From a virus: a stretch of DNA of 47,564 nucleotides. Positions 1 through 12,703 of the stretch are shown here, piece by piece (positions within the stretch are counted from its first letter, which is position 1; the number at the start of each line of letters is the position of its first letter). The stretch spans positions 1 to 47,564 of the IMG/VR virus record IMGVR_UViG_3300047409_000304. One strand, written 5' to 3'. The notes below the pieces were generated by a model. That model was not told the origin of the DNA and made no database searches. It worked only from the letters and a program-made list of their open reading frames with translations. The position numbers were made by a program, and so were the translations under genes.

Positions 1-26
1 TCGATCGACTCTGACTTTCCTGCCAT
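1..26 (-). CDS. 5' fragment of the first virion-operon gene (duplicate by end overlap)
   Basis: The ATG at 24-26 and eight codons duplicate the start of the gene at 47224-47463. It is partial only because the contig is opened here. The ribosome-binding site GGGAGGTGAG lies just upstream on the minus strand. Confidence 0.85.
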
Positions 27-127
27 GGTGCTCACCTCCCTGGTGCGTTGAAGTTGAAGTCCCGCTGGGCGTGGCCGCTAACGACCTACCTCTGAGCTGC
101 GGGACAGGTGACGCGAGGGACTCGAAC
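1..127. repeat. Terminal direct repeat (assembly overlap of a circular genome)
   Basis: Bases 1-127 are identical to 47438-47564. An exact repeat of 127 bases at both contig ends is the usual mark of a circular or circularly permuted genome assembled with a k-mer of that size. A genuine short terminal repeat cannot be excluded from the sequence alone. The repeat cuts through the 5' end of the first virion-operon gene and the 3' half of tRNA-His. Confidence 0.9.
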
Positions 128-180
128 CCTCTTCTGCTGGGATCACAACCCAGGGCCTCGACCACTTCGGCTTGCGTCAC
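108..180 (-). tRNA. tRNA-His (anticodon GTG)
   Basis: Cloverleaf on the minus strand. The acceptor stem GTGACGC pairs with GCGTCAC (174-180 with 108-114). The T-arm is GAGGG-TTCGAGT-CCCTC. The anticodon stem CTGGG/CCCAG encloses the loop TTGTGAT, giving anticodon GTG. The D-stem is GCC/GGC with a GG in the loop. CCA is not encoded. Two oddities: position 8 is A rather than U, and the base before the acceptor stem is C rather than the encoded G-1 common in bacterial tRNA-His. Confidence 0.85.
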
Positions 181-330
181 GAAAGGCCGGGGGCACCCGC
201 CAGCTCTGCAGAGCTTCGGGCCGCCCCCTTCCCGAGAGGGGCGCGCACTTGCCTGGTACCGGGATTACGCGCGTCTTCGGGCTAACTGGTGTTCCCTCGC
301 GCGTCGAAAGGCGCGGTCGTTGGGAACAAT
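181..330. other. Inter-tRNA spacer without a recognisable gene
   Basis: This 150-base GC-rich spacer lies between the two tRNAs. I searched it by eye on both strands for a T-arm with TTCRA and found none. It holds a short hairpin around CCCCTTCCCGAGAGGGG (226-242 region) and no convincing reading frame. Confidence 0.5.
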
Positions 331-402
331 TCCGGGGGCTGGACTCGAACCAGCGTCTTCCGCGTTCAGAGCGCGGGTGCAGAACCGTCACCGCGCCCCG
401 GA
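331..402 (-). tRNA. tRNA-Gln (anticodon CTG)
   Basis: Cloverleaf on the minus strand. The acceptor TCCGGGG pairs with CCCCGGA (396-402 with 331-337). The T-arm is GCTGG-TTCGAGT-CCAGC. The anticodon stem CCGCG/CGCGG has loop CTCTGAA, giving CTG (Gln). The D-arm is weak (CGG/CTG with one G-U pair). CCA is not encoded. With tRNA-His it may support decoding of late, highly expressed genes. Confidence 0.82.
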
Positions 403-403
403 T

Positions 404-470
404 GTCCTACGCAGGAATCGAACCTGCACCCCCGACTGCGCTTCTCTGAGATCGCCTATCGAGGTATGAC
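404..470 (-). pseudogene. tRNA-like relic (T-arm intact, anticodon arm missing)
   Basis: On the minus strand there is a perfect T-arm, GCAGG-TTCGATT-CCTGC (411-427). It is preceded within a few bases by AGCGCAGTCGGGG, which resembles a D-arm and D-loop rather than an anticodon arm. Possible acceptor partners exist at 464-470 (six of seven pairs) but no acceptable anticodon stem can be folded between them. I read this as a decayed tRNA or one with an internal deletion. A tRNA with unusual structure is the alternative. Confidence 0.35.
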
Positions 471-520
471 CGACTCGGACGTGACCCCGCTTCTGTTCAT
501 CGGGCGCGGGTGACCCGGTG

Positions 521-913
521 TTACTCTCGGCCGTCTGCTCGACGGCCGGTGTTCGGGATGACCTGCACTGCGCGGTCGTCCCAAAGCTCGATCATGCCGA
601 AGTCCTTCGCGTTCGTGATCTCGAGCACCTGTCCGAGGTGTCGGAGGCACCAGGCTTCGATCGCGGCGATGACCTCGTCGTACTCGGCAAGTGTCTGCCG
701 GTTGGGCGTCGCTCGAGCGGTCATGATCTTCACGCGCTTGCCTTCGGCCAACCACTCGCGAACACGCCGCGCCATCCGCCGCACGGGTGGCCCGATGTGC
801 TGCGGCCCCTTCCACCCGTCGTAGTGGGCGAGCGTTCCGTCGAGGTCGACGCCGATCCACTGGAATGGAGTCTCCCGCGTGTCGAGCGCTCCGGGGATCG
901 CTCGGACGGTCAT
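521..913 (-). CDS. HAD-superfamily phosphatase-like protein
   Basis: A 130-residue protein with the HAD motif I DLDGT at residues 23-27 (Asp nucleophile and Asp acid/base). Motif II is the T of MTAR at 64-67. A late Lys103 and the Asp pair at 112-113 (ELWDD) complete the active site. The short cap-less form is typical of phage HAD hydrolases, which may act on polynucleotide 3'-phosphates, nucleotides or small phosphomonoesters; the substrate cannot be told from sequence. The ATG start overlaps the stop of the preceding gene (ATGA), so it is the last gene of a translationally coupled string. Confidence 0.85.
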   Translation of the reverse strand: MTVRAIPGALDTRETPFQWIGVDLDGTLAHYDGWKGPQHIGPPVRRMARRVREWLAEGKRVKIMTARATPNRQTLAEYDEVIAAIEAWCLRHLGQVLEITNAKDFGMIELWDDRAVQVIPNTGRRADGRE

Positions 914-1062
914 CGGCGCACCAAGAGCTTCCCGGTGAAGCGGTTGCTACCGATGATCTTCACCGACTCGTAGTTTCGCCTCAGGTAGGTTCCCGGCCGG
1001 AGCCAAGGCCACACGAACGAATCGGGCGGCTCGGCAGCGATGATCACCTCGAATCGCCTCAC
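910..1062 (-). CDS. Small hypothetical protein (50 aa)
   Basis: Starts at a GTG that overlaps the stop of the upstream gene (GTGA) and ends in ATGA at the HAD gene, so it is held in place by coupling on both sides. The protein is basic at its end (GKLLVRR) and has a strand-rich look (RRFEVIIAAEPPDSF). I do not recognise a family. Confidence 0.65.
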   Translation of the reverse strand: MRRFEVIIAAEPPDSFVWPWLRPGTYLRRNYESVKIIGSNRFTGKLLVRR

Positions 1063-1424
1063 AGCCCGAACTCCGTTTTGTGTTCCCACGTCGGAGGGGG
1101 AGGCGGCGGCGTAGGAGGCGGCGTGGCCTCGAGGTTGGCAAGGTCGCGCTCGAGCGTTGCCTTGAAGTGCTCGACGTCGGCCATCTGCATGCAGTGCTGC
1201 CATCCGCCGATCGCGAGCGCCTTCATCTCTTCGCCGTTAACGTCCGGTGGCTCGAGGCCTCGCAGGGCCGCTAGCTGGAAGGCGACGTGGGCGATCAGCT
1301 CGCCCAACCTCTCGAGCGAGAGGATGACGCGGATGGCGTCGAGGTTGTCGGGGTCGAGGATAACGCTAGTCGGGATCTCGGGCACACCAGGAACCTCGGG
1401 GATGTCGGGCTGCTCGTCAGGCAC
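1059..1424 (-). CDS. Hypothetical protein with proline-rich tail
   Basis: From a GTG at 1424 (SD-like GGAAG seven bases upstream) the product is 121 residues. A helical middle contains LERLGELIAHVAFQLAALRG and GGWQHCMQMADVEHFKATLER, followed by a TPPPTPPPPPPTW linker near the C-terminus. A GTG at 1472 also has a good SD (AAGGA) and would add 16 residues while overlapping the upstream gene by 56 bases, so the start is uncertain. Function unknown. Confidence 0.65.
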   Translation of the reverse strand: MPDEQPDIPEVPGVPEIPTSVILDPDNLDAIRVILSLERLGELIAHVAFQLAALRGLEPPDVNGEEMKALAIGGWQHCMQMADVEHFKATLERDLANLEATPPPTPPPPPPTWEHKTEFGL

Positions 1425-1743
1425 CGAACGGCTTCCACTTGGACTCTGCAGACGCGGCGGCGACTTCCTCACCTGCGTCCTTCGGATACTCGGGCTGCGG
1501 GTGGTGAACGACGTCGGTGATGTTGTGTATCACCGAGTGCGGGCCGCCGACGCTGAGTAGCGTCTGGAACTGCGACTCATCGACGTCGAGCAAATGGATC
1601 GGGTTGGCCTCCCGCTCGGCGGCCTGACGCAGGAAATCGGAGAGGCCGTCGTACTGGGGGCTGGCGTCGGCAGCCGCTTGCCAACGAGCCTTGACCGATG
1701 GCTCGACGCGGAACTTGATCTCGTCGCTCTTGCGCTCGCTCAT
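1417..1743 (-). CDS. Ribbon-helix-helix (Arc/CopG-like) protein
   Basis: A 108-residue protein whose first 45 residues read as a ribbon-helix-helix fold: a strand (DEIKFRVEPS), a helix (VKARWQAAADAS), then a second helix (LSDFLRQAAEREA). Such domains dimerise and place the strand in the DNA major groove. The remaining ~60 residues are acidic and probably a partner or ligand region. The ATG start overlaps the upstream stop (ATGA). It may regulate phage promoters or be an antitoxin-like factor, but no toxin partner is evident. Confidence 0.7.
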   Translation of the reverse strand: MSERKSDEIKFRVEPSVKARWQAAADASPQYDGLSDFLRQAAEREANPIHLLDVDESQFQTLLSVGGPHSVIHNITDVVHHPQPEYPKDAGEEVAAASAESKWKPFGA

Positions 1744-1952
1744 AGCTTGGTCACCCACTCCATTTCGATGCCGTCGATGCCGTCCGAGTGGTCGATCAGC
1801 TCGGCCGTCACCTTCTGCGGCACGGGCCGGTGTGCTGCGACCTTCTCCATGTGCAGCTCGAGCTGCTTGGCCTTCTCGGAAGCCAGGATGTCGCCGCTGT
1901 ACCAGGCGGACGAGAGCACGACAGCGGAGATGCCGAAGGGGGTGCGGATCAT
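1740..1952 (-). CDS. Hypothetical protein (70 aa)
   Basis: ATG start overlapping the stop of the Acb2/Tad1-like gene by four bases. The N-terminus is hydrophobic (MIRTPFGISAVVLSSAWY) but too mixed for a confident membrane segment. The middle is helical and charged (SEKAKQLELHMEKVAAH). No family recognised. Tight coupling to the candidate anti-defence gene suggests related expression. Confidence 0.65.
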   Translation of the reverse strand: MIRTPFGISAVVLSSAWYSGDILASEKAKQLELHMEKVAAHRPVPQKVTAELIDHSDGIDGIEMEWVTKL

Positions 1953-2284
1953 GGCGTGTGCGTCCCCTCGACGCCGCGGGCCTCGCGCTCAGAGGTTCGG
2001 TGCTGCAACCAGTGCAGCGCCTCCTCGAGCTTCGTGATCGCGAGAGCGTTCTCGCGGCAGGCGAACTTGCCCGACTGGTAGAAGCGAAGGCGGTCGGCCG
2101 CTGCCTCGATGACACCTTCGACGAAGGCGCCGTTCAGCTCGAGGCGTCCGCCCGCGATGTCGCCCTGCACCCAAGCGAGCGGGCCGTCCTGCCAGTGGAT
2201 CTCAAACCCCACGCCTTCCGTCAGGCCGCCCGCCGGGTTGCCGCTCGCATCCTCGAAGTGCTTCGACTCGATCTGCTGCTGCAT
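1949..2284 (-). CDS. Acb2/Tad1-hairpin-like protein, candidate cyclic-nucleotide sponge
   Basis: A 111-residue protein. The C-terminal segment at residues 76-96 (CRENALAITKLEEALHWLQHR) fits the R-E-x-x-L-x-x-T-x-L-E-E-A-x-x-W helical hairpin shared by Acb2 (anti-CBASS) and Tad1 (anti-Thoeris) proteins, which oligomerise and sequester cyclic di/trinucleotides or gcADPR. The N-terminal half (TEGVGFEIHWQDGP, GAFVEGVIEAAADRL) is strand-rich and would form the rest of the fold. I chose the ATG with AAGGAG eleven bases upstream; the frame stays open further upstream. The match rests on motif recall, not a search. Ligand and activity are unknown. Confidence 0.6.
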   Translation of the reverse strand: MQQQIESKHFEDASGNPAGGLTEGVGFEIHWQDGPLAWVQGDIAGGRLELNGAFVEGVIEAAADRLRFYQSGKFACRENALAITKLEEALHWLQHRTSEREARGVEGTHTP

Positions 2285-2340
2285 GTGCGCGATCACTCCT
2301 TGTGGGAACAGGTTGTCGTTCAGGACTTCATCTCCCGTGG

Positions 2341-2550
2341 CTAGTACCAGCCATGGGACTCCGACGCGGGAGGGCCATCGGGGACGGGAGGGGCGGCGGT
2401 CGTGGTGGGGCAAGGGGGCTGGGGCTGGAGGGCCTCGACGGCCTGTGCCTGAGGCTTGATGCCTCCTCGACCGCATGGTTGAGCCATCGGGCCAGCACAC
2501 TGGGACACCAGTGGGCATCGAGGGCAGTAGTTCACCCCTCGCACGCGCAC
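2341..2550 (-). CDS. Small cysteine-containing hypothetical protein
   Basis: A 69-residue frame from GTG at 2550 (other in-frame GTGs at 2544 and 2535). The N-terminal half carries C-x2-C and further cysteines (NYCPRCPLVSQC, QPCGRGG), which could bind zinc. The C-terminal half is proline/alanine-rich low complexity. No strong ribosome-binding site is visible, and 218 bases without a gene precede it, so it is only moderately supported. Confidence 0.45.
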   Translation of the reverse strand: MRVRGVNYCPRCPLVSQCAGPMAQPCGRGGIKPQAQAVEALQPQPPCPTTTAAPPVPDGPPASESHGWY

Positions 2551-2768
2551 GCCTGAGCGCAGGAGCCAGGGGCTGGGCAGAGCCAGATGGTGAACCAGCG
2601 GCCCCCGGCGACCGGTAGTGCTGTCGTCGGTCTATGCCACCGGCTACGGACTGCCAACCTGAGGCTGTAGGTGCCATGGGCCTGAACCATGGGCTGTCGC
2701 CTTCGGCTGCCGAGTCGGTGGTCGGTAACTCTAAGCCTTAGGTCAAAAACCCTTAGGTCTTTGCCCCC
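2551..2768. other. Gene-free stretch with a short direct repeat
   Basis: No convincing frame. It contains a 9-base direct repeat CCTTAGGTC at 2736-2744 and 2751-2759, and the small palindrome CTAAGCCTTAG (2731-2741). It lies just downstream of the minus-strand gene at 2769-3029, so a processing or termination role is possible but unproven. Confidence 0.4.
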
Positions 2769-3029
2769 CTACCCCCCAAGCTCGTCCAAGAAGTCGGGGC
2801 ACGGCTCAAACGCGATGTCTAGGTCGCCATCGGGGTCAGGGGTGAAGATCACAAGCTCGCGCGACGGCGTCCCCGGCGGGTGGCGAATCGCCAGAAGCTC
2901 CTCTTGCAGGCGGCGCCAAGCAAGCTCCTCGGTCGTGGCGTACTGGGACGGCGTGGCGCCAGCGACCCAGGCTCTGTACTCGCTCCAGGCTCGAGCCTCG
3001 CGCTCGTCGGCTGTCAGTCTTGCGGCCAC
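2769..3029 (-). CDS. Hypothetical protein (86 aa), helical
   Basis: Begins at GTG 3029 with AGGG eight bases upstream and overlaps the preceding gene by 16 bases. The N-terminal two thirds are predicted helical and charged (LTADEREARAWSEYRAWVAG, EELAWRRLQEELLAI). The C-terminus is acidic (DPDGDLDIAFEPCPDFLDELGG). No recognised family. The codon pattern and coupling make it a likely real gene. Confidence 0.65.
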   Translation of the reverse strand: MAARLTADEREARAWSEYRAWVAGATPSQYATTEELAWRRLQEELLAIRHPPGTPSRELVIFTPDPDGDLDIAFEPCPDFLDELGG

Positions 3030-3214
3030 GGCGCGAACCCTACGGGGCGCTTGCGGGCGATCTTACGCCGCAGGTCTTTCGCCTCGCGCTTCGTGAGCGT
3101 GGGATCGAGTGAGGAGCTTGCGCCCCCAGACATCAGCAAGTGGGCCACGTCCATACCCGCGTACTCCTCGTCGGAGCGTTGACGATTGACTCTCGGTTGT
3201 GTCCACCGACTCAC
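3014..3214 (-). CDS. Small basic hypothetical protein, first gene of the minus-strand block
   Basis: A 66-residue protein from GTG 3214 with a strong GGAGG seven to eight bases upstream. The C-terminal half is basic (TLTKREAKDLRRKIARKRP), compatible with nucleic-acid binding. It is the first gene of a transcript that probably runs leftwards through the tRNAs and, across the circle junction, towards the virion genes. Function unknown. Confidence 0.65.
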   Translation of the reverse strand: MSRWTQPRVNRQRSDEEYAGMDVAHLLMSGGASSSLDPTLTKREAKDLRRKIARKRPVGFAPWPQD

Positions 3215-3737
3215 TCCAGGCCCTCCTCAGGACTCAAACTTCCCGCAAATAGCGAACTTTTCGTGAGGGCACACTTGACGTACCCTAGACCTGCGCCTAT
3301 CTTGTCCCTTGCCACCCCGACCACCCGGCGCGAGACGCCGGACACACTCAACCCCAGGCCATGCACAGGGAGCCGCCAAGGGGAGTAGGGGAAGTCGGAA
3401 CGATTGAGGCGCTGCGGCGTGGACTCTCGGAGCTGACTTGGGTGACCTACCTCGGTCACAGGCCCCCTTCGACCGACGGAGAGAGGCGGGGGGACAACAC
3501 CACCGTTTCCTCCTCCCAAGGGCAGGAGCGTCGAGGGCTTTAGGCCTTCGGCGTTCCGCCGACTCCTGGGGGTCACGACGTGAGCCAGAGGCGCTTGAGA
3601 CACAGCGTCAGCAGCCGTCAAAGCCCTACTCGTCCGCAGCGTCCGCCACTGGCCGACCGACTGCCACGCAGCTACGGCGACTCTCAGGGGTCAGCGGAGC
3701 GCTTGCTCCGAACCATCACCCGTCCAGGGAGGACACC
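3215..3737. other. Divergent intergenic region with long leader
   Basis: About 520 bases between divergent operons with no convincing gene. It holds a sigma70-like promoter for the rightward operon (3275-3303), the inverted repeat GTGACC-6-GGTCAC (3442-3459), and a hairpin CGGAGC-GCTT-GCTCCG (3695-3710) just before the first start codon. The leader from the predicted start (~3310) to 3738 is about 430 nt, long enough to hold a structured or trans-acting RNA. An origin is also possible, though I see no iteron series. Confidence 0.5.
3275..3303 (+). promoter_or_regulatory. Sigma70-like promoter of the rightward early operon
   Basis: TTGACG (3275-3280), a 17-base spacer, then TATCTT (3298-3303). 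This is the best promoter match I see in the window, and it points into the plus-strand gene block at 3.7-6.8 kb. Confidence 0.65.
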
Positions 3738-3740
3738 GTG
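3695..3740 (+). promoter_or_regulatory. Hairpin plus GGGAGG start-associated element, gene 1
   Basis: Stem CGGAGC/GCTCCG with GCTT loop (3695-3710), then CCAGGGAGG and the GTG start at 3738. It is the first of a series of hairpin-plus-SD leaders in this operon, although it lacks the GGTGC/GCACC pair seen in the others. Confidence 0.55.
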
Positions 3741-3965
3741 ATCATCTCGAGCGAGAACACGACAACCGAGAACGGAACAACGGTTCACAGTTCCGTCACG
3801 CTTGACATCGACGCAATCGGCGTTTCGCCTCCGTTCACTCTGACGGCGTATGCCTCCGGCGAGCGCATCGTCTCTCACCACTCGACAGGTGCAGAAGCGC
3901 GCAAGGAACGAGTGAGGGTTCATTCCTCACTAGTCCTGGCGCACGCTCCATCGCTGAGCCGCTGA
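3738..3965 (+). CDS. Hypothetical protein (75 aa)
   Basis: Chosen from GTG 3738 because GGGAGG sits five bases upstream; the open frame extends upstream without such a site. The protein is Thr/Ser-rich with alternating polar and hydrophobic residues (TVHSSVTLDIDAIGV, PPFTLTAYASGERIV), suggesting beta structure, and ends basic. First gene of the operon driven by the promoter at 3275. No family recognised. Confidence 0.6.
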   Translation: MIISSENTTTENGTTVHSSVTLDIDAIGVSPPFTLTAYASGERIVSHHSTGAEARKERVRVHSSLVLAHAPSLSR

Positions 3966-3978
3966 ACCTCAGCCGGTA

Positions 3979-4039
3979 GCGCTCGCAAGAGCGCCGCCGG
4001 GTGCTGTTTGGCACCGCACCCGCACCAGGGAGGAACGAC
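3979..4039 (+). promoter_or_regulatory. Structured leader: GCAA-tetraloop hairpin, GGTGC/GCACC stem, SD
   Basis: Perfect 6-bp stem GCGCTC-GCAA-GAGCGC (3979-3994), a GNRA tetraloop. It is followed by GGTGC-6-GCACC (4000-4015), then GCACCAGGGAGG and the ATG at 4040. The same two-part design recurs before four further genes. Confidence 0.7.
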
Positions 4040-4219
4040 ATGTCTGTGAACATCGAGGCGATCATCGCCTACGAGTCAGGCGAGCTGGATGACGAGGCCA
4101 CCATCGACCTCTTCCAGAACCTGATCGACACGGGCGCTGCGTGGAGGCTGCAAGGCTCCTACGGGCGCGCCGCCGCTGCATTGATCGAGGCGGGGCACTG
4201 CACCCCGGCGTCGGCATGA
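4040..4219 (+). CDS. Small conserved phage protein (DUF7417-like)
   Basis: A 59-residue acidic protein, MSVNIEAIIAYESGELDDEA followed by TIDLFQNLIDTGAAWRLQG and YGRAAAALIEAG. This sequence pattern is familiar from small actinophage and proteobacterial phage proteins of unknown role, which I believe are classed as DUF7417. The ATG follows AGGGAGG with normal spacing. Its stop overlaps the next start (ATGA), so the two are coupled. Confidence 0.75.
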   Translation: MSVNIEAIIAYESGELDDEATIDLFQNLIDTGAAWRLQGSYGRAAAALIEAGHCTPASA

Positions 4220-4452
4220 TCCACACCGACGGCACACCAACGATCAGCAACGCGGTCGAGCTGACCTACAGCGGCGAAGAGATCAACACCTCGCTGCTGG
4301 AACGTGACGGCGCGGGCATCAACGTCCGCGTTCACTACTCCGACGACACGCTCTGGCTGCTCGTAGCCGACAGCGATGGCCCGCACGTCGCGGTCATCCC
4401 GCCAGACAAGGTGCTCGACGCGTTCGACCACCCGTACTGCTACCTGCCGTAG
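4216..4452 (+). CDS. Hypothetical protein (78 aa)
   Basis: Coupled to the preceding gene by ATGA. The protein alternates strands and turns (VELTYSGEEINTSLLERDG, NVRVHYSDDTLWLLVADSDG, HVAVIPPDKVLDAFDHP), suggesting a small beta or alpha-beta fold. No cysteines suited to metal binding and no membrane segment. Function unknown. Confidence 0.65.
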   Translation: MIHTDGTPTISNAVELTYSGEEINTSLLERDGAGINVRVHYSDDTLWLLVADSDGPHVAVIPPDKVLDAFDHPYCYLP

Positions 4453-4488
4453 CGAGTGCTCGCAAGCTCGCAGGCTGGGGCTGACAGC

Positions 4489-4558
4489 GGCAGGGGTCAG
4501 CGATGACCCCTTGCCGGTGCAGCAACCGCTGCGCTACCCCGCACCAAGGGAGGAAACC
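4489..4558 (+). promoter_or_regulatory. Structured leader of the DUF932 gene
   Basis: Long hairpin of 11 pairs with a one-base bulge and a GCGA (GNRA) tetraloop at 4489-4515. GGTGC (4516-4520) and GCACC (4541-4545) follow, then AAGGGAGG (4546-4553) and the ATG at 4559. Confidence 0.7.
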
Positions 4559-5536
4559 ATGTCTGCACTCTTCGAGAAGGGCTTCTTCGTACGCGAGGCA
4601 GCCTGGCACGGCGAGGGCGTAGTCCTTGCGGACTACCCCGGCCGTGAAGAGGCAATGCGGCTGGCCGGTCATGACTTCACGGTCATCGAGCGGCCGGTCG
4701 AGATCGTCGGCCTGCAGTCGAACCGCAAGGCCGAAGGCTGGAAGGGCCTCGTCAAGTCGGGAACGGGTGAGCTTCTCAACGTCACCCGCGACACGTACGA
4801 GGTCATCCAGAACAGCGCGGCGTACGACATCGCCGAACTGCTCTTCGATCAGGGCTTCGAGTACGAGACGGGAATCCTGCTGGACGAGGGCCGCATCTGC
4901 GCGCTCACGCTCAAGCTCGACACCCCGATCGTGCTACCTGGCGACGACAGCTCCACGCTGCCGTTCGGGTGCCTGAGCTGGACGCATGACGGCAGCGGGT
5001 CGCTCCGGGTACGCTCGGGCGCCATCCGCCAGGTATGCGCCAACACCGTCAGCGCCAGCGAGGCCGAAGGCAAGAGGCTCGGCACCGACTTCACGTTCCG
5101 CCACACCAAGAACGTGAAGGATCGCATCTCCGACGCGCGTGAAGTCGTGAAGGGCGCCCGCAAGGCATTCGACCGCTACACCGAGGCGATGATCGAGCTG
5201 GGCGAGATCAGCGTTACCCCGTCGCAGCGCGACCTCTTCGTCTCCGAGATCATCGGCGACAAGGGCGGGCTGCTGTCGGCCAACGCGGCAACGTCTCCGC
5301 GTGTCAAGACCAACATCGAGAACGAGCGGACGAAAATCCTCTCGCTCTTCATGGGGCCGACCATCCCCGAAGCTCACAAGCTCACCGGGTACGGCCTGTT
5401 CCTCGCGGGTGGCGAGTACTTCGACCACCTGCGCGCGTACCGCTCCAAGGACTCGTACGTGAAGCGCACACTCTTGACGGACAATCCCGCCAAGGCTTCG
5501 CTGAACCGCACGATCCGCGAGCTGGCCGCGGTGTAG
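4559..5536 (+). CDS. DUF932 family phage/plasmid-like protein
   Basis: A 325-residue protein of the DUF932 (TIGR03299) type, often found on phages and plasmids near replication genes. Typical features are the N-terminal AAWHGEGVVL, a mid WKGLVKSGTGELLNVTRDTYEVIQN, the central CANTVSASEAEG followed by HTKNVKDRISDAREVV, and a C-terminal GLFLAGGEYFDHLRAYRSKD. The molecular role of the family is not established. It is the largest gene of this operon. The start is fixed by AAGGGAGG five bases upstream; longer in-frame extension upstream overlaps the previous gene and is unlikely. Confidence 0.88.
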   Translation: MSALFEKGFFVREAAWHGEGVVLADYPGREEAMRLAGHDFTVIERPVEIVGLQSNRKAEGWKGLVKSGTGELLNVTRDTYEVIQNSAAYDIAELLFDQGFEYETGILLDEGRICALTLKLDTPIVLPGDDSSTLPFGCLSWTHDGSGSLRVRSGAIRQVCANTVSASEAEGKRLGTDFTFRHTKNVKDRISDAREVVKGARKAFDRYTEAMIELGEISVTPSQRDLFVSEIIGDKGGLLSANAATSPRVKTNIENERTKILSLFMGPTIPEAHKLTGYGLFLAGGEYFDHLRAYRSKDSYVKRTLLTDNPAKASLNRTIRELAAV

Positions 5537-5542
5537 CGGCTA

Positions 5543-5601
5543 GGGCATCCTTCACGGGATGCCCCTGCCGGTGCAACCGCACCAACACCAAGGGAGGAAC
5601 G
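5543..5601 (+). promoter_or_regulatory. Structured leader with GGTGC-AACC-GCACC stem
   Basis: GGGCATCC-6-GGATGCCC hairpin (5543-5564), then GGTGC-AACC-GCACC (5570-5583), AAGGGAGG (5590-5597) and ATG 5602. The GCACC arm here lies seven bases before the SD. Confidence 0.7.
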
Positions 5602-5799
5602 ATGGACACCAACGATGACCGCGAGCAGTTTGTCGCTCAGATCGTCGAAGACTCGACGGGCAACGTCGTGCGTCAGTCTGCTCCGACGTACAAGCGGCGG
5701 GCCGAGAGCATCGAGGACGGCATGCTCATCAACCTCAATCACGACAACTACTCGACTCGCGTCGTGCCTGCATCCGAGGCTGTCGCTGAGATCGCGTGA
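5602..5799 (+). CDS. Hypothetical protein (65 aa)
   Basis: A 65-residue acidic protein (MDTNDDREQFVAQIVEDSTG) with an amphipathic second half. Strong SD and structured leader upstream. No recognised domain; small proteins of this kind after DUF932 are usually accessory. Confidence 0.7.
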   Translation: MDTNDDREQFVAQIVEDSTGNVVRQSAPTYKRRAESIEDGMLINLNHDNYSTRVVPASEAVAEIA

Positions 5800-5804
5800 T
5801 CCAG

Positions 5805-5861
5805 CGAGCAGGGCCTGAGGGCCTTGCTCGGTGCATCCCGCACCGACCGAAGGGAGGAACG
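5805..5861 (+). promoter_or_regulatory. Structured leader with UGAG-loop hairpin
   Basis: Eleven-pair hairpin (one G-U) with TGAG loop at 5805-5830. It is followed at once by GGTGC (5830-5834) and GCACC (5840-5844), which can form a second stem with a five-base loop, then AAGGGAGG and ATG 5862. Confidence 0.7.
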
Positions 5862-6128
5862 ATGGCAAGAACCATCAAGTTCACGGACGAGGAGCTACAG
5901 CTCGTCGTGGACATCCTCGGCGCAGAGGCAGAGAACGACGCCTACGACGAAGAGGAAAATCGCGCGGCCTTCGACAAGCTCGACGCTCTGCGCGAGAAGC
6001 TCGCCGCTGCGCAAGCTGTTCCCGCGCTGGACGCGTGGCAGCGCAAGCGTGATCTATCGCTGCGGCCTCGCCCCGGCGAGTCTGCGGAGGACGTCGTCAA
6101 GCGCGTGACGCGAGCCGCAAAGAGCTGA
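5862..6128 (+). CDS. Hypothetical helical protein (88 aa)
   Basis: An 88-residue, largely helical acidic protein (TIKFTDEELQLVVDILGAEA, EEENRAAFDKLDALREKLAAA). A basic tail follows (RVTRAAKS). The first helices could form a coiled coil. No family recognised. Strong start signal with AGGGAGG. Confidence 0.7.
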   Translation: MARTIKFTDEELQLVVDILGAEAENDAYDEEENRAAFDKLDALREKLAAAQAVPALDAWQRKRDLSLRPRPGESAEDVVKRVTRAAKS

Positions 6129-6141
6129 CACGACTGCGACT

Positions 6142-6217
6142 GAGCTGCAGCAGCTCCGGCCAGCAGTGGCCGGTGCTGGTACCGCTCGGTACCGACACCC
6201 GCACCAGGGAGGAACAG
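6142..6217 (+). promoter_or_regulatory. Structured leader with three adjacent hairpins
   Basis: GAGCTG-CAG-CAGCTC (6142-6156), CCGGCCA-GCAG-TGGCCGG (6156-6173) and GGTACC-GCTC-GGTACC (6178-6193) are stacked end to end. The GGTG before and CACC after the last hairpin can extend it, then CGCACCAGGGAGG and ATG 6218. Confidence 0.7.
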
Positions 6218-6454
6218 ATGCAAGCTCTATGCGATTGCTCGAACGGCGGGGGCACCTGTGATTGCCCGCACCGTCGAGCCATAAGCGAAGCAGCCTTCGA
6301 GCTGATCGTGGACACTGCGGTTCAGGGTCGCCTGCTGGGTGACCGCCGGTACCGCAACGCCGAGAACGCCGAGGCGCAAGCCGAAGCGGAGGAGGCAATC
6401 ACGGCCGAAGTGTTGGCCGAAAAGCACGCCCTGTATCGGATCGAGGCGTCATGA
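6218..6454 (+). CDS. Hypothetical protein with Cys-rich N-terminus (78 aa)
   Basis: The N-terminus CDCSNGGGTCDCPHR holds four cysteines and a histidine, a plausible zinc-binding loop. The rest is helical and rich in Ala/Glu (NAEAQAEAEEAITAEVLAEK). Last gene of the series with a structured leader; its stop overlaps the next start (ATGA). Function unknown. Confidence 0.68.
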   Translation: MQALCDCSNGGGTCDCPHRRAISEAAFELIVDTAVQGRLLGDRRYRNAENAEAQAEAEEAITAEVLAEKHALYRIEAS

Positions 6455-6558
6455 GGAAGCTCATCGCGCTAGGCCTTTGGGCCTGCGCCGACGCGCTCGA
6501 AGTCGTACGCGGCGGGCTGCTGGCCGGTGCCGTCGCGCTGATCGGGCGGGAGTCGTGA
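6451..6558 (+). CDS. Tiny membrane protein (35 aa)
   Basis: ATG overlapping the upstream stop. The product is MRKLIALGLWACADALEV followed by VRGGLLAGAVALIGRES, two short hydrophobic runs. It could be a single-pass or amphipathic membrane peptide. Its stop overlaps the next GTG (GTGA). Too short for family assignment. Confidence 0.5.
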   Translation: MRKLIALGLWACADALEVVRGGLLAGAVALIGRES

Positions 6559-6803
6559 CGTTCGACCCAGCCGCGGCGTTCCTGCTCGACCTGTCGTGGG
6601 ATCAGCTCTTCGAGCCTGCGTCAGCCGCCGTGACGAACACCGACTACCGCTGCAAGGGCTGCCGTGAGATCGTGAAGCTCGGCCGTCGAGAGAGGCACCA
6701 CCACCAGCACGTACGGGAGCGTCAAGCTCAGATCAAGAACGAGCGCGCCAAGCTCAAGCGCGAACGCCTCAAGCGTCTCGCGGAGGCCAGAGCCGCACGC
6801 TAG
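6555..6803 (+). CDS. Small zinc-finger-like basic protein (82 aa)
   Basis: GTG start coupled to the previous stop. A C-x2-C followed by histidines (YRCKGCREIVKLGRRERHHH, then QHVRERQ) fits a CCHH-type zinc knuckle around residues 32-52. The C-terminal third is a strongly basic helix (NERAKLKRERLKRLAEARAAR minus ends), so nucleic-acid binding is likely. Its TAG stop shares the tetranucleotide CTAG (6800-6803) with the convergent gene on the other strand. Confidence 0.68.
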   Translation: MTFDPAAAFLLDLSWDQLFEPASAAVTNTDYRCKGCREIVKLGRRERHHHQHVRERQAQIKNERAKLKRERLKRLAEARAAR

Positions 6804-7048
6804 TCGCCCGTGGGAGGAGAAGAGGGTGGTGCTGTCCCCCACATCTCGACGTGCTGTCCCCGATCCTCGTCCAGCGCGTAAGGCCGCGGCAGGTACTCCA
6901 TCAGGAACGCCTGCTCGGGCAGAAGCTCGTCTCTCTCGGTGACCTCCACCCTCAGCTCCAGATATCCCGCCGCGCGCTCCAACTTGGCTGCGTGTTCCGC
7001 TGCCCATGCGGCTCGCGTGGGGTGAACGAGAAGGAACCTAGTCTTCAT
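6800..7048 (-). CDS. Hypothetical protein (82 aa)
   Basis: ATG overlapping the stop of the upstream gene (ATGA). It begins KTRFLLVHPTRAAWAAEHAA, with a strand then helix, and ends in an acidic and proline-rich tail. No recognised domain. Last gene of the minus-strand small-gene block; it ends tail-to-tail with the gene at 6555-6803, sharing four bases. Confidence 0.65.
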   Translation of the reverse strand: MKTRFLLVHPTRAAWAAEHAAKLERAAGYLELRVEVTERDELLPEQAFLMEYLPRPYALDEDRGQHVEMWGTAPPSSPPTGD

Positions 7049-7260
7049 GCGTCGGACTGCAGCTTCCGCGCCAGCAGCTCCTCGCGCTCCTTCTCGTTGA
7101 GCAGCCCGTCCTTCATGACGAGGACGCACAGCTCGAGGAGCGACAGCTTCGCGCCCCTGCCATGAACGATCGCGCACGCTCGAGCCATGTCGGCGCGCAC
7201 CGTGTCCTTGCTCAGGCCGTGCGTGCCTGCGGGTTCAGGCTCGGTCGTCACGAGCTGCAT
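7045..7260 (-). CDS. Hypothetical helical protein (71 aa)
   Basis: A compact all-helical sequence (LSKDTVRADMARACAIVHGR, KLSLLELCVLVMKDGLLNEK, EREELLARKLQSDA). The start overlaps the C-terminal codons of the next upstream gene by 26 bases. No domain recognised. The LSLLELCVLVMKDG segment resembles a dimerisation helix but is unassigned. Confidence 0.62.
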   Translation of the reverse strand: MQLVTTEPEPAGTHGLSKDTVRADMARACAIVHGRGAKLSLLELCVLVMKDGLLNEKEREELLARKLQSDA

Positions 7261-7468
7261 CCTCTAGCGCGCGCAATCGCTTTTCGACACGAACGAATCG
7301 GTCGATGACCTCATTGCTTCTGGCAATGCGTTTGGGGTGCCGAAAACAACGAGAACACGAGCAGCCGCGGCGTGGGCCTGTCAGGCGGTGCCTGATTCGC
7401 CAGAGACGCAGTCGAGGGTCGCGTGAGTGACACGGGTTCGGGAGTCCGAGTGCCCACCAATCTCTCAT
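7235..7468 (-). CDS. Basic Cys/His-containing hypothetical protein (77 aa)
   Basis: Highly basic, with CSCSRCFRHPKR in the middle (three Cys and one His, possible zinc site). A C-terminal helix follows (SNEVIDRFVRVEKRLRALED). ATG 7468 overlaps the upstream stop (ATGA), which supports the frame despite its unusual composition. The 26-base overlap with the next gene is longer than its neighbours'. Confidence 0.5.
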   Translation of the reverse strand: MRDWWALGLPNPCHSRDPRLRLWRIRHRLTGPRRGCSCSRCFRHPKRIARSNEVIDRFVRVEKRLRALEDAARDDRA

Positions 7469-7809
7469 GCGGTCAGCTCTGCCTTGAGCTTCGCGATGTA
7501 CTCCGCAAGCTCGGCGTCCGTCAGCTCGCTGCGGTCGCTCAGAATCTTGGTGGCGGCGCCTGACGTTTCGTCATCGTCGCCCTTGAGCCGACCGCTCGCG
7601 GCCGACAGCGCCGACAGCGCTTTGACGTACAGGTCGTAGTCGGCGACCTTGAACGTCACCGTGTCCTTCTCGCCACACTTGAGGCACTGATGGCGGACGA
7701 CTTTCTCGCCACCGTTCTTGACCATGTCCTCCAGCTCGGCGAGGATCTTCGGCAGGAGGCGGTCGACGGCGTCCTTGGTGGTTCCGAGGTCGGGCGCTTC
7801 GTCGGTCAT
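7465..7809 (-). CDS. Hypothetical protein with C-x2-C site (114 aa)
   Basis: The ATG at 7809 overlaps the stop of the small membrane protein upstream (ATGA), so I prefer it to the GTG at 7824. The layout is a helix (KDAVDRLLPKILAELEDMVK), a zinc-like turn (RHQCLKCGEKDTVTFKV) and a helical C-terminus (ELTDAELAEYIAKLKAEL). This helix-zinc loop-helix layout is seen in small DNA-binding and small-terminase-like phage proteins, but I cannot assign it firmly. It is far from the large terminase gene. Confidence 0.65.
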   Translation of the reverse strand: MTDEAPDLGTTKDAVDRLLPKILAELEDMVKNGGEKVVRHQCLKCGEKDTVTFKVADYDLYVKALSALSAASGRLKGDDDETSGAATKILSDRSELTDAELAEYIAKLKAELTA

Positions 7810-7985
7810 GCCGCTGCCGACCACGTCGCGATGCTAAGCAGCACCACCGCGAGCAGGCGCAGCGGGAGCCAGAGCGCAAGCCAGAGCGCCCAGTACGGGG
7901 TGCCGAGCGCTGCGATGCGCCTCTGCGCTACCCGGTGCTGGGCGTGGCAGAACGGGAGGGCGAGGTAGTACGTCACGCGCCACAT
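7806..7985 (-). CDS. Small membrane protein (59 aa)
   Basis: ATG 7985 overlaps the preceding stop (TGATG) and its own stop overlaps the next start (ATGA). After a short polar segment, residues 31-55 (YWALWLALWL then PLRLLAVVLLSIA) form one long or two short membrane helices. No lysis genes are nearby, so a holin role is unlikely; superinfection or inner-membrane functions are possible but unproven. Confidence 0.65.
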   Translation of the reverse strand: MWRVTYYLALPFCHAQHRVAQRRIAALGTPYWALWLALWLPLRLLAVVLLSIATWSAAA

Positions 7986-8209
7986 CAGGCGTTAGCCTCT
8001 CCAGGGCAGTCCTCGGCGAAGTGCCCCTGACGCATCGTCTTCGTTGCGCTGAGCGCATGCTGCGGGCACGAGGGGTCGACGTTCGATCGGTCTACGAGTC
8101 CGCAGGGAGCTTTGGGGCAGGGGCAGCCGTCTTCGAGCGATGTGCCAATCCAAGATCTCCCGACGTGTAGGTCTTCGTCACGCGGCGGGTCGGGGCGTTC
8201 CCAGGACAT
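7985..8209 (-). CDS. Conserved small Cys-rich phage protein (74 aa)
   Basis: Carries the run CPCPKAPCGLVD and then DPSCPQHALSATKTMRQGH and CPG, five or six cysteines and three histidines in a pattern common in small actinophage proteins of unknown role. It likely binds one or two metal ions. ATG 8209 overlaps the upstream stop by one base (TGATG). Function unknown. Confidence 0.72.
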   Translation of the reverse strand: MSWERPDPPRDEDLHVGRSWIGTSLEDGCPCPKAPCGLVDRSNVDPSCPQHALSATKTMRQGHFAEDCPGEANA

Positions 8210-8364
8210 CAGGCGAGCCACCCAATGAGCTGCTTGACGTTGGCATGCAGCAGCGGCAGCTCCGACGCGAGGGCGGTGGAGAACCACGGCTTGTCGACCT
8301 CGGTCATCAGCCCGTCGATGTCGCTGCGGAGCTGCCGCGCGAGTAGAAGCTGCGCCAGCAGCAT
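8209..8364 (-). CDS. Hypothetical helical protein (51 aa)
   Basis: Linked by TGATG overlaps on both sides. The protein (MLLAQLLLARQLRSDIDGLM, then TEVDKPWFST, ELPLLHANVKQLIGWLA) is amphipathic helix throughout and leucine-rich. No domain recognised. The two one-base overlaps make the frame credible despite its small size. Confidence 0.6.
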   Translation of the reverse strand: MLLAQLLLARQLRSDIDGLMTEVDKPWFSTALASELPLLHANVKQLIGWLA

Positions 8365-8834
8365 CAGCGCACACCCGAACGCCGGAACTTGGCGAGCATG
8401 CGCGTCGTGCGGCGCTCCTCGCGCGCGGCGACTCGCGGCTCTATGCCGAAGCGGGACTTGAGATGAAGCTCCAACCGGCGCTCGAGACGCTGCTGCCGCT
8501 TGCGCGCGCGACAGTCCTCGCAGTACACGCGGCGCTTGCTGTTGCCGAGCTTCACGATTCGCTTGCCACCACAGAGGACGGGCACAGACCGCTTCCGCTT
8601 CAGGCGTCCGCTTCTGACCTTCGTCTCACCCACGGGGCGAGTGCAGCGCTCTTGCAGTACGAGCTGGTGCTGCGTCGACAGGCGCGCGAACGTCGGCGGG
8701 TACTTGAACCTACGCGCGGGCCACGGGACATCGCTCAGGGCGCGCATCTGGTTCACGGCTTTGCGGTAGACCTTCGACTTCTTCATGGCATAGGTAGCGA
8801 TGTCACGCGCCAGCCTTGCGGGCGTAGGGGTCAA
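8364..8834 (-). CDS. Basic zinc-binding hypothetical protein (up to 156 aa)
   Basis: Very basic (many Arg/Lys), with a mid segment VLCGGKRIVKLGNSKRRVYC followed by EDCRARKRQQR, giving C-x17-C-x2-C that may bind zinc. A basic helical C-terminus follows. It suggests DNA or RNA binding. The start is uncertain: TTG 8834 gives 156 residues but overlaps the upstream gene by 32 bases; ATG 8786 gives 140 residues; neither has a clear SD. Confidence 0.6.
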   Translation of the reverse strand: MTPTPARLARDIATYAMKKSKVYRKAVNQMRALSDVPWPARRFKYPPTFARLSTQHQLVLQERCTRPVGETKVRSGRLKRKRSVPVLCGGKRIVKLGNSKRRVYCEDCRARKRQQRLERRLELHLKSRFGIEPRVAAREERRTTRMLAKFRRSGVR

Positions 8835-9030
8835 CCGACTCAGGGTCGAGTGGGCCGATGGTGATGTAGCCAGTCCCTTCGCACGTCTCGCAGCCGTAGC
8901 TAGCCTTCGTCAAGCCGACGTAGGAGCTGGCGCCTCGAAGCTGCCCACCTCCGACGATGCGAGATCGACCGTCGGTGGTGAGGTTCCCCTCGTATTCGCA
9001 GTCGGGACAGCGCTTGTGTGTGATCCGCAC
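8803..9030 (-). CDS. DnaJ-like zinc-ribbon small protein (75 aa)
   Basis: Two C-x2-C pairs, HKRCPDCEYEG at the N-terminus and YGCETCEGTGYI near the C-terminus. The spacing resembles a DnaJ-type zinc ribbon or a treble-clef. First gene of the leftward block. The promoter/operator region at 9176-9257 and a hairpin at 9110-9129 lie upstream. Possibly a regulatory or nucleic-acid-binding protein; not assigned. Confidence 0.7.
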   Translation of the reverse strand: MRITHKRCPDCEYEGNLTTDGRSRIVGGGQLRGASSYVGLTKASYGCETCEGTGYITIGPLDPESVDPYARKAGA

Positions 9031-9109
9031 GAAGCCCCTGCGGTGCTGCGGTTCCTGCCTGCTGCCTTTTGCCAGTGTCTGTCCTTGGGTAGGCGGGGGC
9101 TGTCCCTGA

Positions 9110-9129
9110 CATCACCCAAAAGGGTGATG
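9110..9129. terminator. Perfect 8-bp hairpin in leftward leader
   Basis: CATCACCC (9110-9117), AAAA loop, GGGTGATG (9122-9129). No U-run follows on either strand, so it may be an attenuator, operator or RNA-processing site rather than a true intrinsic terminator. Confidence 0.45.
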
Positions 9130-9175
9130 AGATTACGGTGCGAGGAATGAGCACCCCTAGAGCCTTCGGTTAACC

Positions 9176-9257
9176 ACTTGCATATATAGCAATGTCACAC
9201 CAGTCTCCCGGCCGTGAAAGTCGCGCGCGAGGTGTGACATAGCTACCTATGCCAAGT
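9176..9257. promoter_or_regulatory. Outward-facing pair of conserved promoter/operator motifs
   Basis: Read outward, the two arms are nearly the same: GGTGTGACATTGCTATATAT then GCAAGT on the minus strand (9201 down to 9176), and GGTGTGACATAGCTACCTAT then GCCAAGT on the plus strand (9231-9257). The TATATAT/TACCTAT part could be a -10 element, with GTGACAT acting as activator or repressor site. The arms are 29 bases apart. A related pair occurs at 23189-23245. Confidence 0.65.
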
Positions 9258-9363
9258 CAAACAACACCGGATCGACTGAGAGGGCCGACTCCGTCCGACC
9301 TCGCATGGTACACTTCGGAGTCCAACCAGTGATTCAGTCCCCCGCACCAGGAGGAACAACCCC

Positions 9364-9813
9364 ATGTCAGCACTCGCGGAAGCCCCGCTGCGGCGGCGCA
9401 CGCTCGAAAGGACGGGCATGACGCCGGAGCAAGAGCTGGAGCTGGAGCTGCTCATCTCAGAGCAGGAGGCCGACGACACCTACTTCGTCCGAAAGCCCGT
9501 AGGCGAGGTGAGCCTCGATCGCCCCGCACTCAGCTCGGGCTTCATTGAGCGCTACTCCGGCGACCCCACCTTCTTCGACTTCGTCGGCATCGAGTACGAC
9601 TTCGACAGTTTCGGCCCCCACGCGCAGGGCCAGTTCGTCGACTTCCTGCCGCGCGAGAGGGAGTCGCTCTTCGCGGTCGGCGTCAAGCACGGGGTCAGGA
9701 GCACCTACACCAACCTCAAGTGTCGCTGCACCCCGTGCCGAGCCGCCAACAGCGCGTTCATTCGCGAGCGGCGGGCCGACGCGAAGGCGAAGGCCAAGAG
9801 GGCCGAGGCATGA
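9364..9813 (+). CDS. Hypothetical protein with C-terminal CxCxxC motif (149 aa)
   Basis: First gene of the replication operon, starting at an ATG after GCACCAGGAGG. Residues 15-35 are a very acidic helix. The C-terminal part has KHGVRSTYTNLKCRCTPCRA, a C-x-C-x2-C metal-binding turn that is a familiar module in actinophage proteins, followed by a basic helix. This suggests a small zinc-containing nucleic-acid-binding tail. Function unknown. Confidence 0.72.
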   Translation: MSALAEAPLRRRTLERTGMTPEQELELELLISEQEADDTYFVRKPVGEVSLDRPALSSGFIERYSGDPTFFDFVGIEYDFDSFGPHAQGQFVDFLPRERESLFAVGVKHGVRSTYTNLKCRCTPCRAANSAFIRERRADAKAKAKRAEA

Positions 9814-10406
9814 TCGAGATCAAGAGCATCAGCGGCACTACGCTGTACGTCGCAAAAGACGCAAAGACGGCGCGGGCAGCCCTCGAAGCGGCCGTCGCCG
9901 ACGGGGCGTACCTGACCAGGGCGAACCTGGTTGGGGCGAACCTGGCCGGGGCGAACCTGGTTGGGGCGAACCTGGCCGGGGCGAACCTGGTTGGGGCGAA
10001 CCTGGCCGGGGCGAACCTGGATGGGGCGAACCTGGCCGGGGCGAACCTGGTTGGGGCGAACCTGGCCGGGGCGAACCTGGATGGGGCGATTTGGGTAGGG
10101 GTAGCGAACATCCTCCGAACCGCCATCGTGTCCATGAACGATTCCGGTCGTCACTGGATTCAGGGCACGGAGCGGGAGCTGCTGGAGGACGGCAGCACGG
10201 CCTACTGCTCGATCGGTTCGGTAAACGCTCAGGCGACTGCGCCAGCCACAGCCCGAACCATCGCCATCTGGCTGCTCAACTCCGTTGCCGCCGGTTCGAT
10301 CGTCGACTTCAACGACGCCAGCAGCACGACCTGGGAAGACGTGCAGGCGGTTTTCGCCGTCGCCATCAAGCACGCCGATCGGTTCGCTGCGAGGGCCGAG
10401 GCGTGA
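9810..10406 (+). CDS. Pentapeptide-repeat protein
   Basis: A 198-residue protein. After an N-terminal strand-rich cap (residues 1-33) it has about twelve A-N/D-L-x-G pentapeptides (residues ~37-93), which fold as a right-handed quadrilateral beta-helix. A C-terminal domain of about 100 residues (SMNDSGRHWIQGTERELLED onward) is unassigned. Pentapeptide-repeat proteins can mimic DNA and protect or inhibit gyrase, but many have unknown roles. The start overlaps the upstream stop (ATGA) and its own stop overlaps the next GTG. The repeat DNA is almost perfectly homogeneous. Confidence 0.88.
   Translation: MIEIKSISGTTLYVAKDAKTARAALEAAVADGAYLTRANLVGANLAGANLVGANLAGANLVGANLAGANLDGANLAGANLVGANLAGANLDGAIWVGVANILRTAIVSMNDSGRHWIQGTERELLEDGSTAYCSIGSVNAQATAPATARTIAIWLLNSVAAGSIVDFNDASSTTWEDVQAVFAVAIKHADRFAARAEA
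9918..10088 (+). repeat. 15-bp tandem repeat encoding pentapeptides
   Basis: Eleven units of GCGAACCTGGNNGGG, differing only at the codon giving V, A or D (order V-A-V-A-V-A-D-A-V-A-D). A 30-base and 60-base higher-order period is visible. Near-identity at synonymous sites points to recent expansion or ongoing homogenisation; copy number may also be affected by assembly. Confidence 0.9.
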
Positions 10407-10537
10407 TCGCCTTCGCGAACCTGCACATCCTCACCGTCAAGCACGGCGAGGTCTACGTGCATCACTTCTGGCTGCTGTTCTTGATCGCCTACCTCGTCTT
10501 CTCGTCCGCCAGGGCCTACGTGGGAGGCAGGTCATGA
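10403..10537 (+). CDS. Small membrane protein (44 aa)
   Basis: GTG start in GTGA overlap with the pentapeptide gene; its stop overlaps the next ATG. Residues 20-38 (VHHFWLLFLIAYLVFSSARA) form a single membrane helix with a short N-terminal strand. It sits between the pentapeptide protein and an exported zincin-like protein, so it may act at the membrane. No family recognised. Confidence 0.62.
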   Translation: MIAFANLHILTVKHGEVYVHHFWLLFLIAYLVFSSARAYVGGRS

Positions 10538-11304
10538 GGGGCGCCATCCGGCTCTGGCCCTTAGTCGTCGCGGCGATCTTCGTCACCGCTGGCTACGACC
10601 TCAGGATCTCGACGGAGCCGTCCCCAGCGGCCTCGAACGTACAGACGATCTACGTCCGCAACGTCTCGTCCTTCGTCGCCGACTCGGCGGTGAAGAACGC
10701 GCTCCCGGCGATCAACGCCGCCACGCACGCGGACTTCGCGCCGAGTTGGCACATCGACGCCAACGTCGTCTTCATCGGCAAGGCCTCGGCACCTGTTGGC
10801 GCGAGCACGATCACGCTCGTCGACAAGGGGCCGGTGAAGGGCGCCCTTGCCTACCACGATCTAGTAAACGGCGTCCCCGTCTCGATCGTCTACGCGGGCA
10901 CGTCGAGGTACTACGGCTACTCGTGGACGGTCGCGCTCACACACGAGCTGTGGGAGCAGTTGGCGGACATCCCAGCGGGCGAGGGGGCGGTGTCGACGAT
11001 GCAGGCCCCCGACGGCACGATCTGGGCGCAGGAGGTGGCCGACCCAGTCGAGTCGGACGAAGACGCCTACACGCGTCCAGGCGCCGACGGCAAGCCGGTG
11101 CTCATCTCCGACTTCATCACTGAGAAGTGGTTCGGTGCCCTCACGTCCGGCCCGTACGACTTCGCCAACCACATCCAGAAGCCGCTGGTCGTCGACAAGG
11201 GCGGGTATGCGCAGTGGTGGGACGGGTTCGGCTGGAACGTCATCGAGAACTTCCGTGGCGCGCGTGACCGCGGCTACCTGCTCGGCGACGGGAGGCTCTC
11301 GTGA
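10534..11304 (+). CDS. Exported or membrane-anchored zincin-like protein (256 aa)
   Basis: The N-terminus MRGAIRLWPLVVAAIFVTAG is a signal peptide or anchor. Residues 135-145 (ALTHELWEQLAD) carry His137-Glu138 with Glu141 and Asp145. About 25 residues on comes AQEVADPVESDE with Glu167. This H-E-...-D plus downstream E-V-x-D-P-V pattern, with the later SDFITEKWF and GGYAQWWDG, matches a family of bacterial and phage proteins I know as putative zinc metallopeptidases of the SHEVLE-type. Catalysis is unproven. ATG overlaps the upstream stop. Confidence 0.68.
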   Translation: MRGAIRLWPLVVAAIFVTAGYDLRISTEPSPAASNVQTIYVRNVSSFVADSAVKNALPAINAATHADFAPSWHIDANVVFIGKASAPVGASTITLVDKGPVKGALAYHDLVNGVPVSIVYAGTSRYYGYSWTVALTHELWEQLADIPAGEGAVSTMQAPDGTIWAQEVADPVESDEDAYTRPGADGKPVLISDFITEKWFGALTSGPYDFANHIQKPLVVDKGGYAQWWDGFGWNVIENFRGARDRGYLLGDGRLS

Positions 11305-11465
11305 TCCGCGTCGAGGTCGTCCTCAAGAACAGGTGGGGCAGCTACCAGAACGACACGGCTTCAGAGCGCGCGCTCAAGCGCGAGATCGTCGAGATCGTCA
11401 CGGAGCGCGCCGAAGCCGATGACCTCGAGATCGTACGCATTCAGTTCTTGGGGCCGAAGAAGTGA
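11301..11465 (+). CDS. Small hypothetical protein (54 aa)
   Basis: GTG in GTGA overlap with the preceding stop, ending in GTGA with the next gene. The sequence alternates strand-helix-strand (IRVEVVLKNRWGSY, LKREIVEIVTERAEADDLEI, VRIQFLGPKK), a compact alpha-beta fold. No domain assignment. The double coupling supports it as real. Confidence 0.62.
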   Translation: MIRVEVVLKNRWGSYQNDTASERALKREIVEIVTERAEADDLEIVRIQFLGPKK

Positions 11466-11617
11466 TCGTCCCCGCTGAGGACATCGCGCAGGACGAGCTG
11501 GAGGAGCTGACCGCCGCCCTCCCGCCGGTCGACGGCGAGGGCCACTCCCCCGCCGACCTCGAGTACCGGGCCAAGTCCGGCCTCGACACGTACCACCCGA
11601 CCTACCCCGACGCTTGA
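11462..11617 (+). CDS. Small acidic hypothetical protein (51 aa)
   Basis: GTG start coupled to the previous stop. Acidic N-terminal helix (AEDIAQDELEELTAALPPVD) followed by a polar tail (ADLEYRAKSGLDTYHPTYPD). No recognised family. It ends 88 bases before the nuclease gene, leaving room for a hairpin. Confidence 0.58.
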   Translation: MIVPAEDIAQDELEELTAALPPVDGEGHSPADLEYRAKSGLDTYHPTYPDA

Positions 11618-11636
11618 CCCCACCTGTGTGGCTACG

Positions 11637-11665
11637 CGCAACCCGGCTGCCTGAGCGGGATTGCG
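11637..11665 (+). promoter_or_regulatory. Hairpin before the RecB-like nuclease gene
   Basis: CGCAACCCG (11637-11645) pairs with CGGG-A-TTGCG (11656-11665) with one bulged A and a ten-base loop. It lies in the only sizeable gap of this operon. It could be an RNA-processing site, partial terminator or regulatory leader. Confidence 0.4.
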
Positions 11666-11705
11666 TGATGTCCCGCGCGATGTCCCCACGACACGAAGGA
11701 TAGAT

Positions 11706-12539: not shown

Positions 12540-12703
12540 CGCAGATGCGCGACACGGAGCGGCTGCAGGACGAGCGTCTCGCGCGGCTGATCGCCGCCCT
12601 CACCGAGAGCGCGGACGCCGACTACCGCGGCAACCGATCGCCCGAAGCAGAGATCACCCACAAGGCGTTGGTCGCTGAGGGCCTTAGAGAGGAATCCAAG
12701 TGA
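12536..12703 (+). CDS. Small helical hypothetical protein (55 aa)
   Basis: GTG start coupled to the nuclease stop. Helical, charged (DTERLQDERLARLIAALTES then SPEAEITHKALVAEGLREES). It could bind the adjacent nuclease or DNA, but nothing identifies it. Its end (AAGTGA) contains the next gene's start. Confidence 0.6.
   Translation: MTQMRDTERLQDERLARLIAALTESADADYRGNRSPEAEITHKALVAEGLREESK

What the first reader, a model, noticed from the sequence alone, without database searches (positions are those of the whole stretch)
1949..2284. Candidate Acb2/Tad1-type sponge against CBASS/Thoeris signalling
The C-terminal CRENALAITKLEEALHWLQ pattern matches the helical hairpin shared by anti-CBASS Acb2 and anti-Thoeris Tad1 proteins, and the strand-rich N-terminal half fits the size of such sponges. 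Its location in a run of small accessory genes away from core genes fits a defence-counter island. The neighbouring RHH protein and unknown coupled genes may be part of the same module.
Basis: partly seen in the sequence, partly recalled or inferred. Interest (0 to 1): 0.68.

Follow-up and report, generated by a model that had tools for sequence, protein, structure and literature searches.

The report
Phage Tad1-family immune-signal sponge gene
A temperate bacterial virus carries a small gene that is a clear relative of Tad1, a known viral protein that soaks up the chemical alarm signals bacteria use against viruses; it is a good annotation of a known kind of protein, in a branch of the family that seems not yet to have been tested.

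Summary
Window 1949-2284 (minus strand) encodes 111 aa with a strand-rich N-terminal half and a long C-terminal helical hairpin. It matches the solved Tad1 proteins by sequence (phmmer 1.3e-12 to CmTad1, 1.5e-10 to CbTad1; profile 8.7e-26) and by predicted fold: all 20 significant Foldseek hits in the PDB are Tad1 chains, several solved with gcADPR or cA3. It shares 61% identity over the 59-residue hairpin and tail with the anti-Thoeris Tad1 of phage SBSphiJ7. All five CbTad1 ligand-contact positions that I recall are kept, one as F to Y. It is a Tad1, not an Acb2: it has the N-terminal strands and the 'R..R..GVEGT' tail. Relatives occur on 44 viral contigs, 117 phage records and 103 cellular-genome stretches. 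It belongs to a well-supported clade (24 of 39 sequences) separate from that of SBSphiJ7 Tad1. The neighbouring genes (an RHH-like protein and small unknowns) occur beside it only in one sister phage, so the 'defence-counter module' is not supported. Ligand and target system are inferred, not shown. This is a new member of a known family, of modest interest.

The parts
1949..2284 (-). tad1: 111-aa Tad1-family protein
2192..2272 (-). N-terminal three-strand region (residues 5-31) of the Tad1 protein
   Evidence: DSSP on the AlphaFold2 model
1976..2122 (-). Helical hairpin (residues 55-103) with R77, N79, R96 and R100 at the positions equivalent to CbTad1 R90, N92, R109 and R113
   Evidence: CbTad1 contact residues and numbering recalled, not read from a paper here
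1740..1952 (-). 70-aa unknown protein, start overlapping the tad1 stop (ATGA), probably translationally coupled; no evidence of a shared function
1417..1743 (-). 108-aa RHH-like protein (motif by eye only), overlaps the preceding gene by ATGA; no database match

Best explanation
The gene is a phage tad1. The inferred mechanism is that of Tad1: during infection or prophage induction the protein assembles into an oligomer (a hexamer in solved Tad1), whose pockets, made between protomers by the loops, the helical hairpin and the C-terminal tail, bind the TIR-made Thoeris signal gcADPR. In at least some family members they also bind CBASS cyclic di- and trinucleotides. Bound signal cannot activate the effector, so abortive infection is blocked without the signal being degraded. 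Shown here: family membership, predicted fold, conservation of the pocket-position residues, purifying selection. Inferred: oligomer, ligand, which host system it blocks, timing of expression.
For: Sequence to solved Tad1: 8kbb (CmTad1) 1.3e-12, 7uav (CbTad1) 1.5e-10, phiKZ gp184 9.8e-07; family profile 8.7e-26, covering the QxGP strand region as well as the hairpin. Fold: 20 of 20 PDB hits with E<=0.001 are Tad1, including the gcADPR complexes 8smd and 7uaw and the cA3 complex 8kbf; the next hit is at 0.71. Viral model library: the best hit is an 'Acb2/Tad1 hairpin domain-containing protein' of a Vibrio phage. 61% identity over residues 51-109 with SBSphiJ7 Tad1, the anti-Thoeris Tad1 described in PMC12043709. 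Pfam PF24729 Acb2_Tad1_hairpin in 35 of 36 family members. Invariant or near-invariant Q32, G34, N51, G52, Q70, F74, R77, N79, R96, R100, R103, G107. dN/dS about 0.24 against the sister phage.
Against: The window protein alone scores 24.3 bits on PF24729, below the 27-bit curated cut-off, although other members reach 2.1e-08. It lies in a clade apart from the validated SBSphiJ7 protein (100/100 split), and residues 37-46 hold an unusual insertion with low model confidence, so ligand choice could differ. The pairwise TM-score to solved chains is moderate (0.60-0.69, rmsd 4-7) for a monomer model. The host and its defence systems are unknown.
Confidence: 0.88

Rival explanations
1. It is a Tad1-fold sponge whose preferred ligand is another immune nucleotide (for example a cyclic trinucleotide, or another TIR product) rather than gcADPR; same mechanism, different target system.
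For: Distinct clade with its own signature WQxGPL...PNGAFVE against FQxGPI...NGxxNE in the SBSphiJ7 clade. Known Tad1s vary in the cyclic dinucleotides they bind (PMC12043709).
Against: The hairpin residues recalled as gcADPR contacts are kept.
Confidence: 0.25
2. It is an Acb2 (helices only, anti-CBASS).
For: Pfam groups the Acb2 and Tad1 hairpins in one family.
Against: N-terminal strands and a C-terminal R..R..GVEGT tail are present; no Acb2 chain is among the PDB sequence hits or the significant fold hits, only Tad1.
Confidence: 0.02
3. A structural or replication-associated phage protein that happens to share the hairpin; some homologues are annotated 'structural protein' or 'ABC transporter ATPase'.
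For: Such names occur in deposited records.
Against: CbTad1 itself carries the name 'ABC transporter ATPase' in the PDB (7uav), so such names are probably old automatic labels. The gene recurs beside unrelated neighbours in unrelated phages, as accessory genes do.
Confidence: 0.03

Closest known systems
Tad1 (Thoeris anti-defence 1) of Bacillus phage SBSphiJ7
   Same: 61% identity over residues 51-109 (hairpin and tail); same QxGP strand motif, NG motif and R..R..GVEGT tail.
   Different: Different N-terminal region (GNPAGG strand segment, WQ instead of FQ, NGAFVE instead of NGxxNE) and a separate clade.
CbTad1 / CmTad1 (PDB 7uav, 7uaw, 8smd, 8kbb-8kbh)
   Same: Fold; sequence 1e-10 to 1e-12; all recalled pocket positions kept (F82 to Y69, R90 = R77, N92 = N79, R109 = R96, R113 = R100).
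   Different: 24-30% identity over the whole structural alignment; an insertion after the QDGP motif in this protein.
phiKZ gp184 (Tad1 homologue, PDB 8y6v)
   Same: C-terminal domain matches at 9.8e-07.
   Different: gp184 has 230 residues with a long N-terminal extension that is absent here.
Acb2 (anti-CBASS 2)
   Same: Related helical hairpin (PF24729).
   Different: [quoted passage not shown] it lacks the N-terminal strand domain.

Membership tests
Tad1 | Sequence similarity to verified Tad1 proteins | tested here: met
Tad1 | N-terminal antiparallel beta-sheet plus two long C-terminal helices | tested here: met
   Three strands and two helices in the model, pLDDT 86.9; all significant PDB fold hits are Tad1. 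Definition from PMC12043709.
Tad1 | Ligand-pocket residues of the hairpin and tail (CbTad1 F82, R90, N92, R109, R113) | tested here: met
   Y69, R77, N79, R96, R100 by alignment. The list of contact residues is recalled, not read in a held paper.
Tad1 | Hexamer (trimer of dimers) | not testable with these tools
   Only monomer prediction was available
Tad1 | Binds gcADPR and blocks Thoeris | not testable with these tools
   Needs a binding assay and a phage infection test
Tad1 | PF24729 above curated cut-off | tested here: inconclusive
   24.3 bits against a cut-off of 27 for this protein; 35 of 36 family members match at E<=0.01, best 2.1e-08
Acb2 | Short N-terminal helix plus hairpin only, no beta domain | tested here: not met
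   Strands 5-11, 17-24 and 27-31 in the model
Tad2 | PF11195 Tad2-like domain | tested here: not met
   No match in the window genome

The most novel reading that the evidence does not exclude
The protein represents a large Tad1 clade, mostly from metagenomic phages and apparently uncharacterised, whose altered strand domain and NGAFVE loop give it a signal preference not seen in known Tad1s, so that it would counter a TIR- or CD-NTase-based defence with a different messenger.
Probability: 0.12. Interest if true: 0.5.

Novelty: new member of a known kind. Interest (0 to 1): 0.22.

Why it matters
It puts a functional name on a 'hypothetical protein' in an otherwise unplaced temperate phage and on its relatives in metagenomes. 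It also delimits a Tad1 clade with no member that I know to be tested, which would be a natural place to look for new ligand specificities. It does not change the understanding of the mechanism.

Tried and rejected
Module with the RHH-like protein and the 70-aa gene: rejected, since relatives of these occur with tad1 only in the sister contig IMGVR_UViG_3300047388_000154. Faster local evolution of tad1: the sister genome aligns over 60% of the window at 83% mean identity with strong mosaicism, so 73% DNA identity at tad1 is not exceptional. Acb2 and Tad2: rejected. Second sponge copy: only one PF24729 match in the genome. PADLOC and NCBIfam gave no named match for the protein. Near-identity DNA searches of known phages found no relative for window 1-12000, and only a 417-base patch of a Bordetella phage in 12001-36000. 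The original Tad1 papers are not held in the library, so pocket-residue numbers rest on memory. The RHH label has no database support.

Full report
Observation. The minus-strand ORF at 1949-2284 is real and begins at a well-placed ATG. It is followed by two small genes, each overlapping its predecessor by ATGA (1740-1952, 1417-1743). The record is a 47,564-base viral contig. A sister contig of 47,649 bases (G001, source of L001) is collinear with it across the window's two ends, so both look like circularly permuted, near-complete genomes. The phage has a tyrosine integrase (22065-22892), a family A DNA polymerase, a portal, a major head protein and a terminase, so it is probably temperate.

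Identity. phmmer against the PDB gives only Tad1 proteins and the phiKZ Tad1 homologue gp184 as significant matches. A profile from 36 relatives strengthens this to 8.7e-26 and extends the match into the QxGP strand region. The AlphaFold2 model matches solved Tad1 chains exclusively: 20 of 20 hits at E<=0.001, next hit 0.71. Among named phages the closest in the hairpin is Tad1 of SBSphiJ7, at 61% over 59 residues. The review PMC12043709 states that SBSphiJ7 tad1 was shown to inhibit Thoeris, that Tad1 is a hexamer binding gcADPR in pockets made by loops and C-terminal tail of one protomer and the helices of another, and that it can also bind cyclic di- and trinucleotides.

Pocket. The alignment puts Y69, R77, N79, R96 and R100 opposite the CbTad1 residues that I recall as F82, R90, N92, R109 and R113. 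N79, R96 and R100 are invariant in 39 distinct relatives, R77 is kept in 37, and position 69 is Y or F in 38. The recalled list could not be checked in a held paper.

Distribution and evolution. 44 viral contigs, 117 phage records and 103 stretches of cellular genomes across many phyla encode relatives. Apart from the sister phage, none of the viral loci compared shares any other gene near tad1 with the window, as expected for a mobile accessory gene. A tree of 39 proteins splits into two groups with full support. The window protein lies in the group of 24, with signature GNPAGG...WQxGPL...PNGAFVE; SBSphiJ7 Tad1 lies in the other. Against the sister phage, tad1 shows dN 0.15 and dS 0.62, that is, purifying selection. 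Its DNA divergence is not exceptional in a strongly mosaic pair of genomes.

Mechanism. By homology the protein would sequester TIR- and/or CD-NTase-made messengers and so prevent abortive infection. Membership, fold, conserved pocket positions and constraint are shown; oligomer, ligand, target system and timing are inferred.

Verdict. A new member of a known family.

Noticed in passing
window 22065-22892 (-): Tyrosine integrase (phrog_1 7.9e-44; PF00589), so the phage is probably temperate.
   Followed up: partly
window 18595-19203 (+): dATP/dGTP diphosphohydrolase N-terminal domain (PF18909, 7.8e-24); about 417 bases are 78.5% identical to Bordetella phage vB_BbrM_PHB04, the only near-DNA match in the two window stretches compared with known phages (1-12000 and 12001-36000).
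   Followed up: partly
window 12700-13224 (+): Dual-specificity phosphatase-like protein (PF00782, 3.3e-10) encoded among replication genes.
   Followed up: no
window 24379-28839 (-): 1,486-aa protein without any PHROG or Pfam match, in the structural region, where the sister genome hardly aligns at DNA level.
   Followed up: no
window 39671-40888 (-): Major head protein is 100% identical in amino acids to that of the sister contig although the genomes align over only 60% at 83% identity, suggesting recent exchange or strong constraint of the head region.
   Followed up: partly
L046 2923-3300: Tad1-like ORF of Vibrio phage BX-1, unannotated in the record, has lost several conserved hairpin residues (CAANAKAIHHL for CRENALAITKL) while keeping R..R..GVEGT: possibly altered ligand choice.
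   Followed up: no
L030 6001-6312: Tad1-like protein with a C-terminal extension of about 60 residues (173 aa in all) and a divergent hairpin (CSENAVALSHLGHALDALDGRT).
   Followed up: no
window 107-180 and 330-402 (-): tRNA-His and tRNA-Gln genes; the sister phage has tRNA-Met and tRNA-His at the corresponding place.
   Followed up: no
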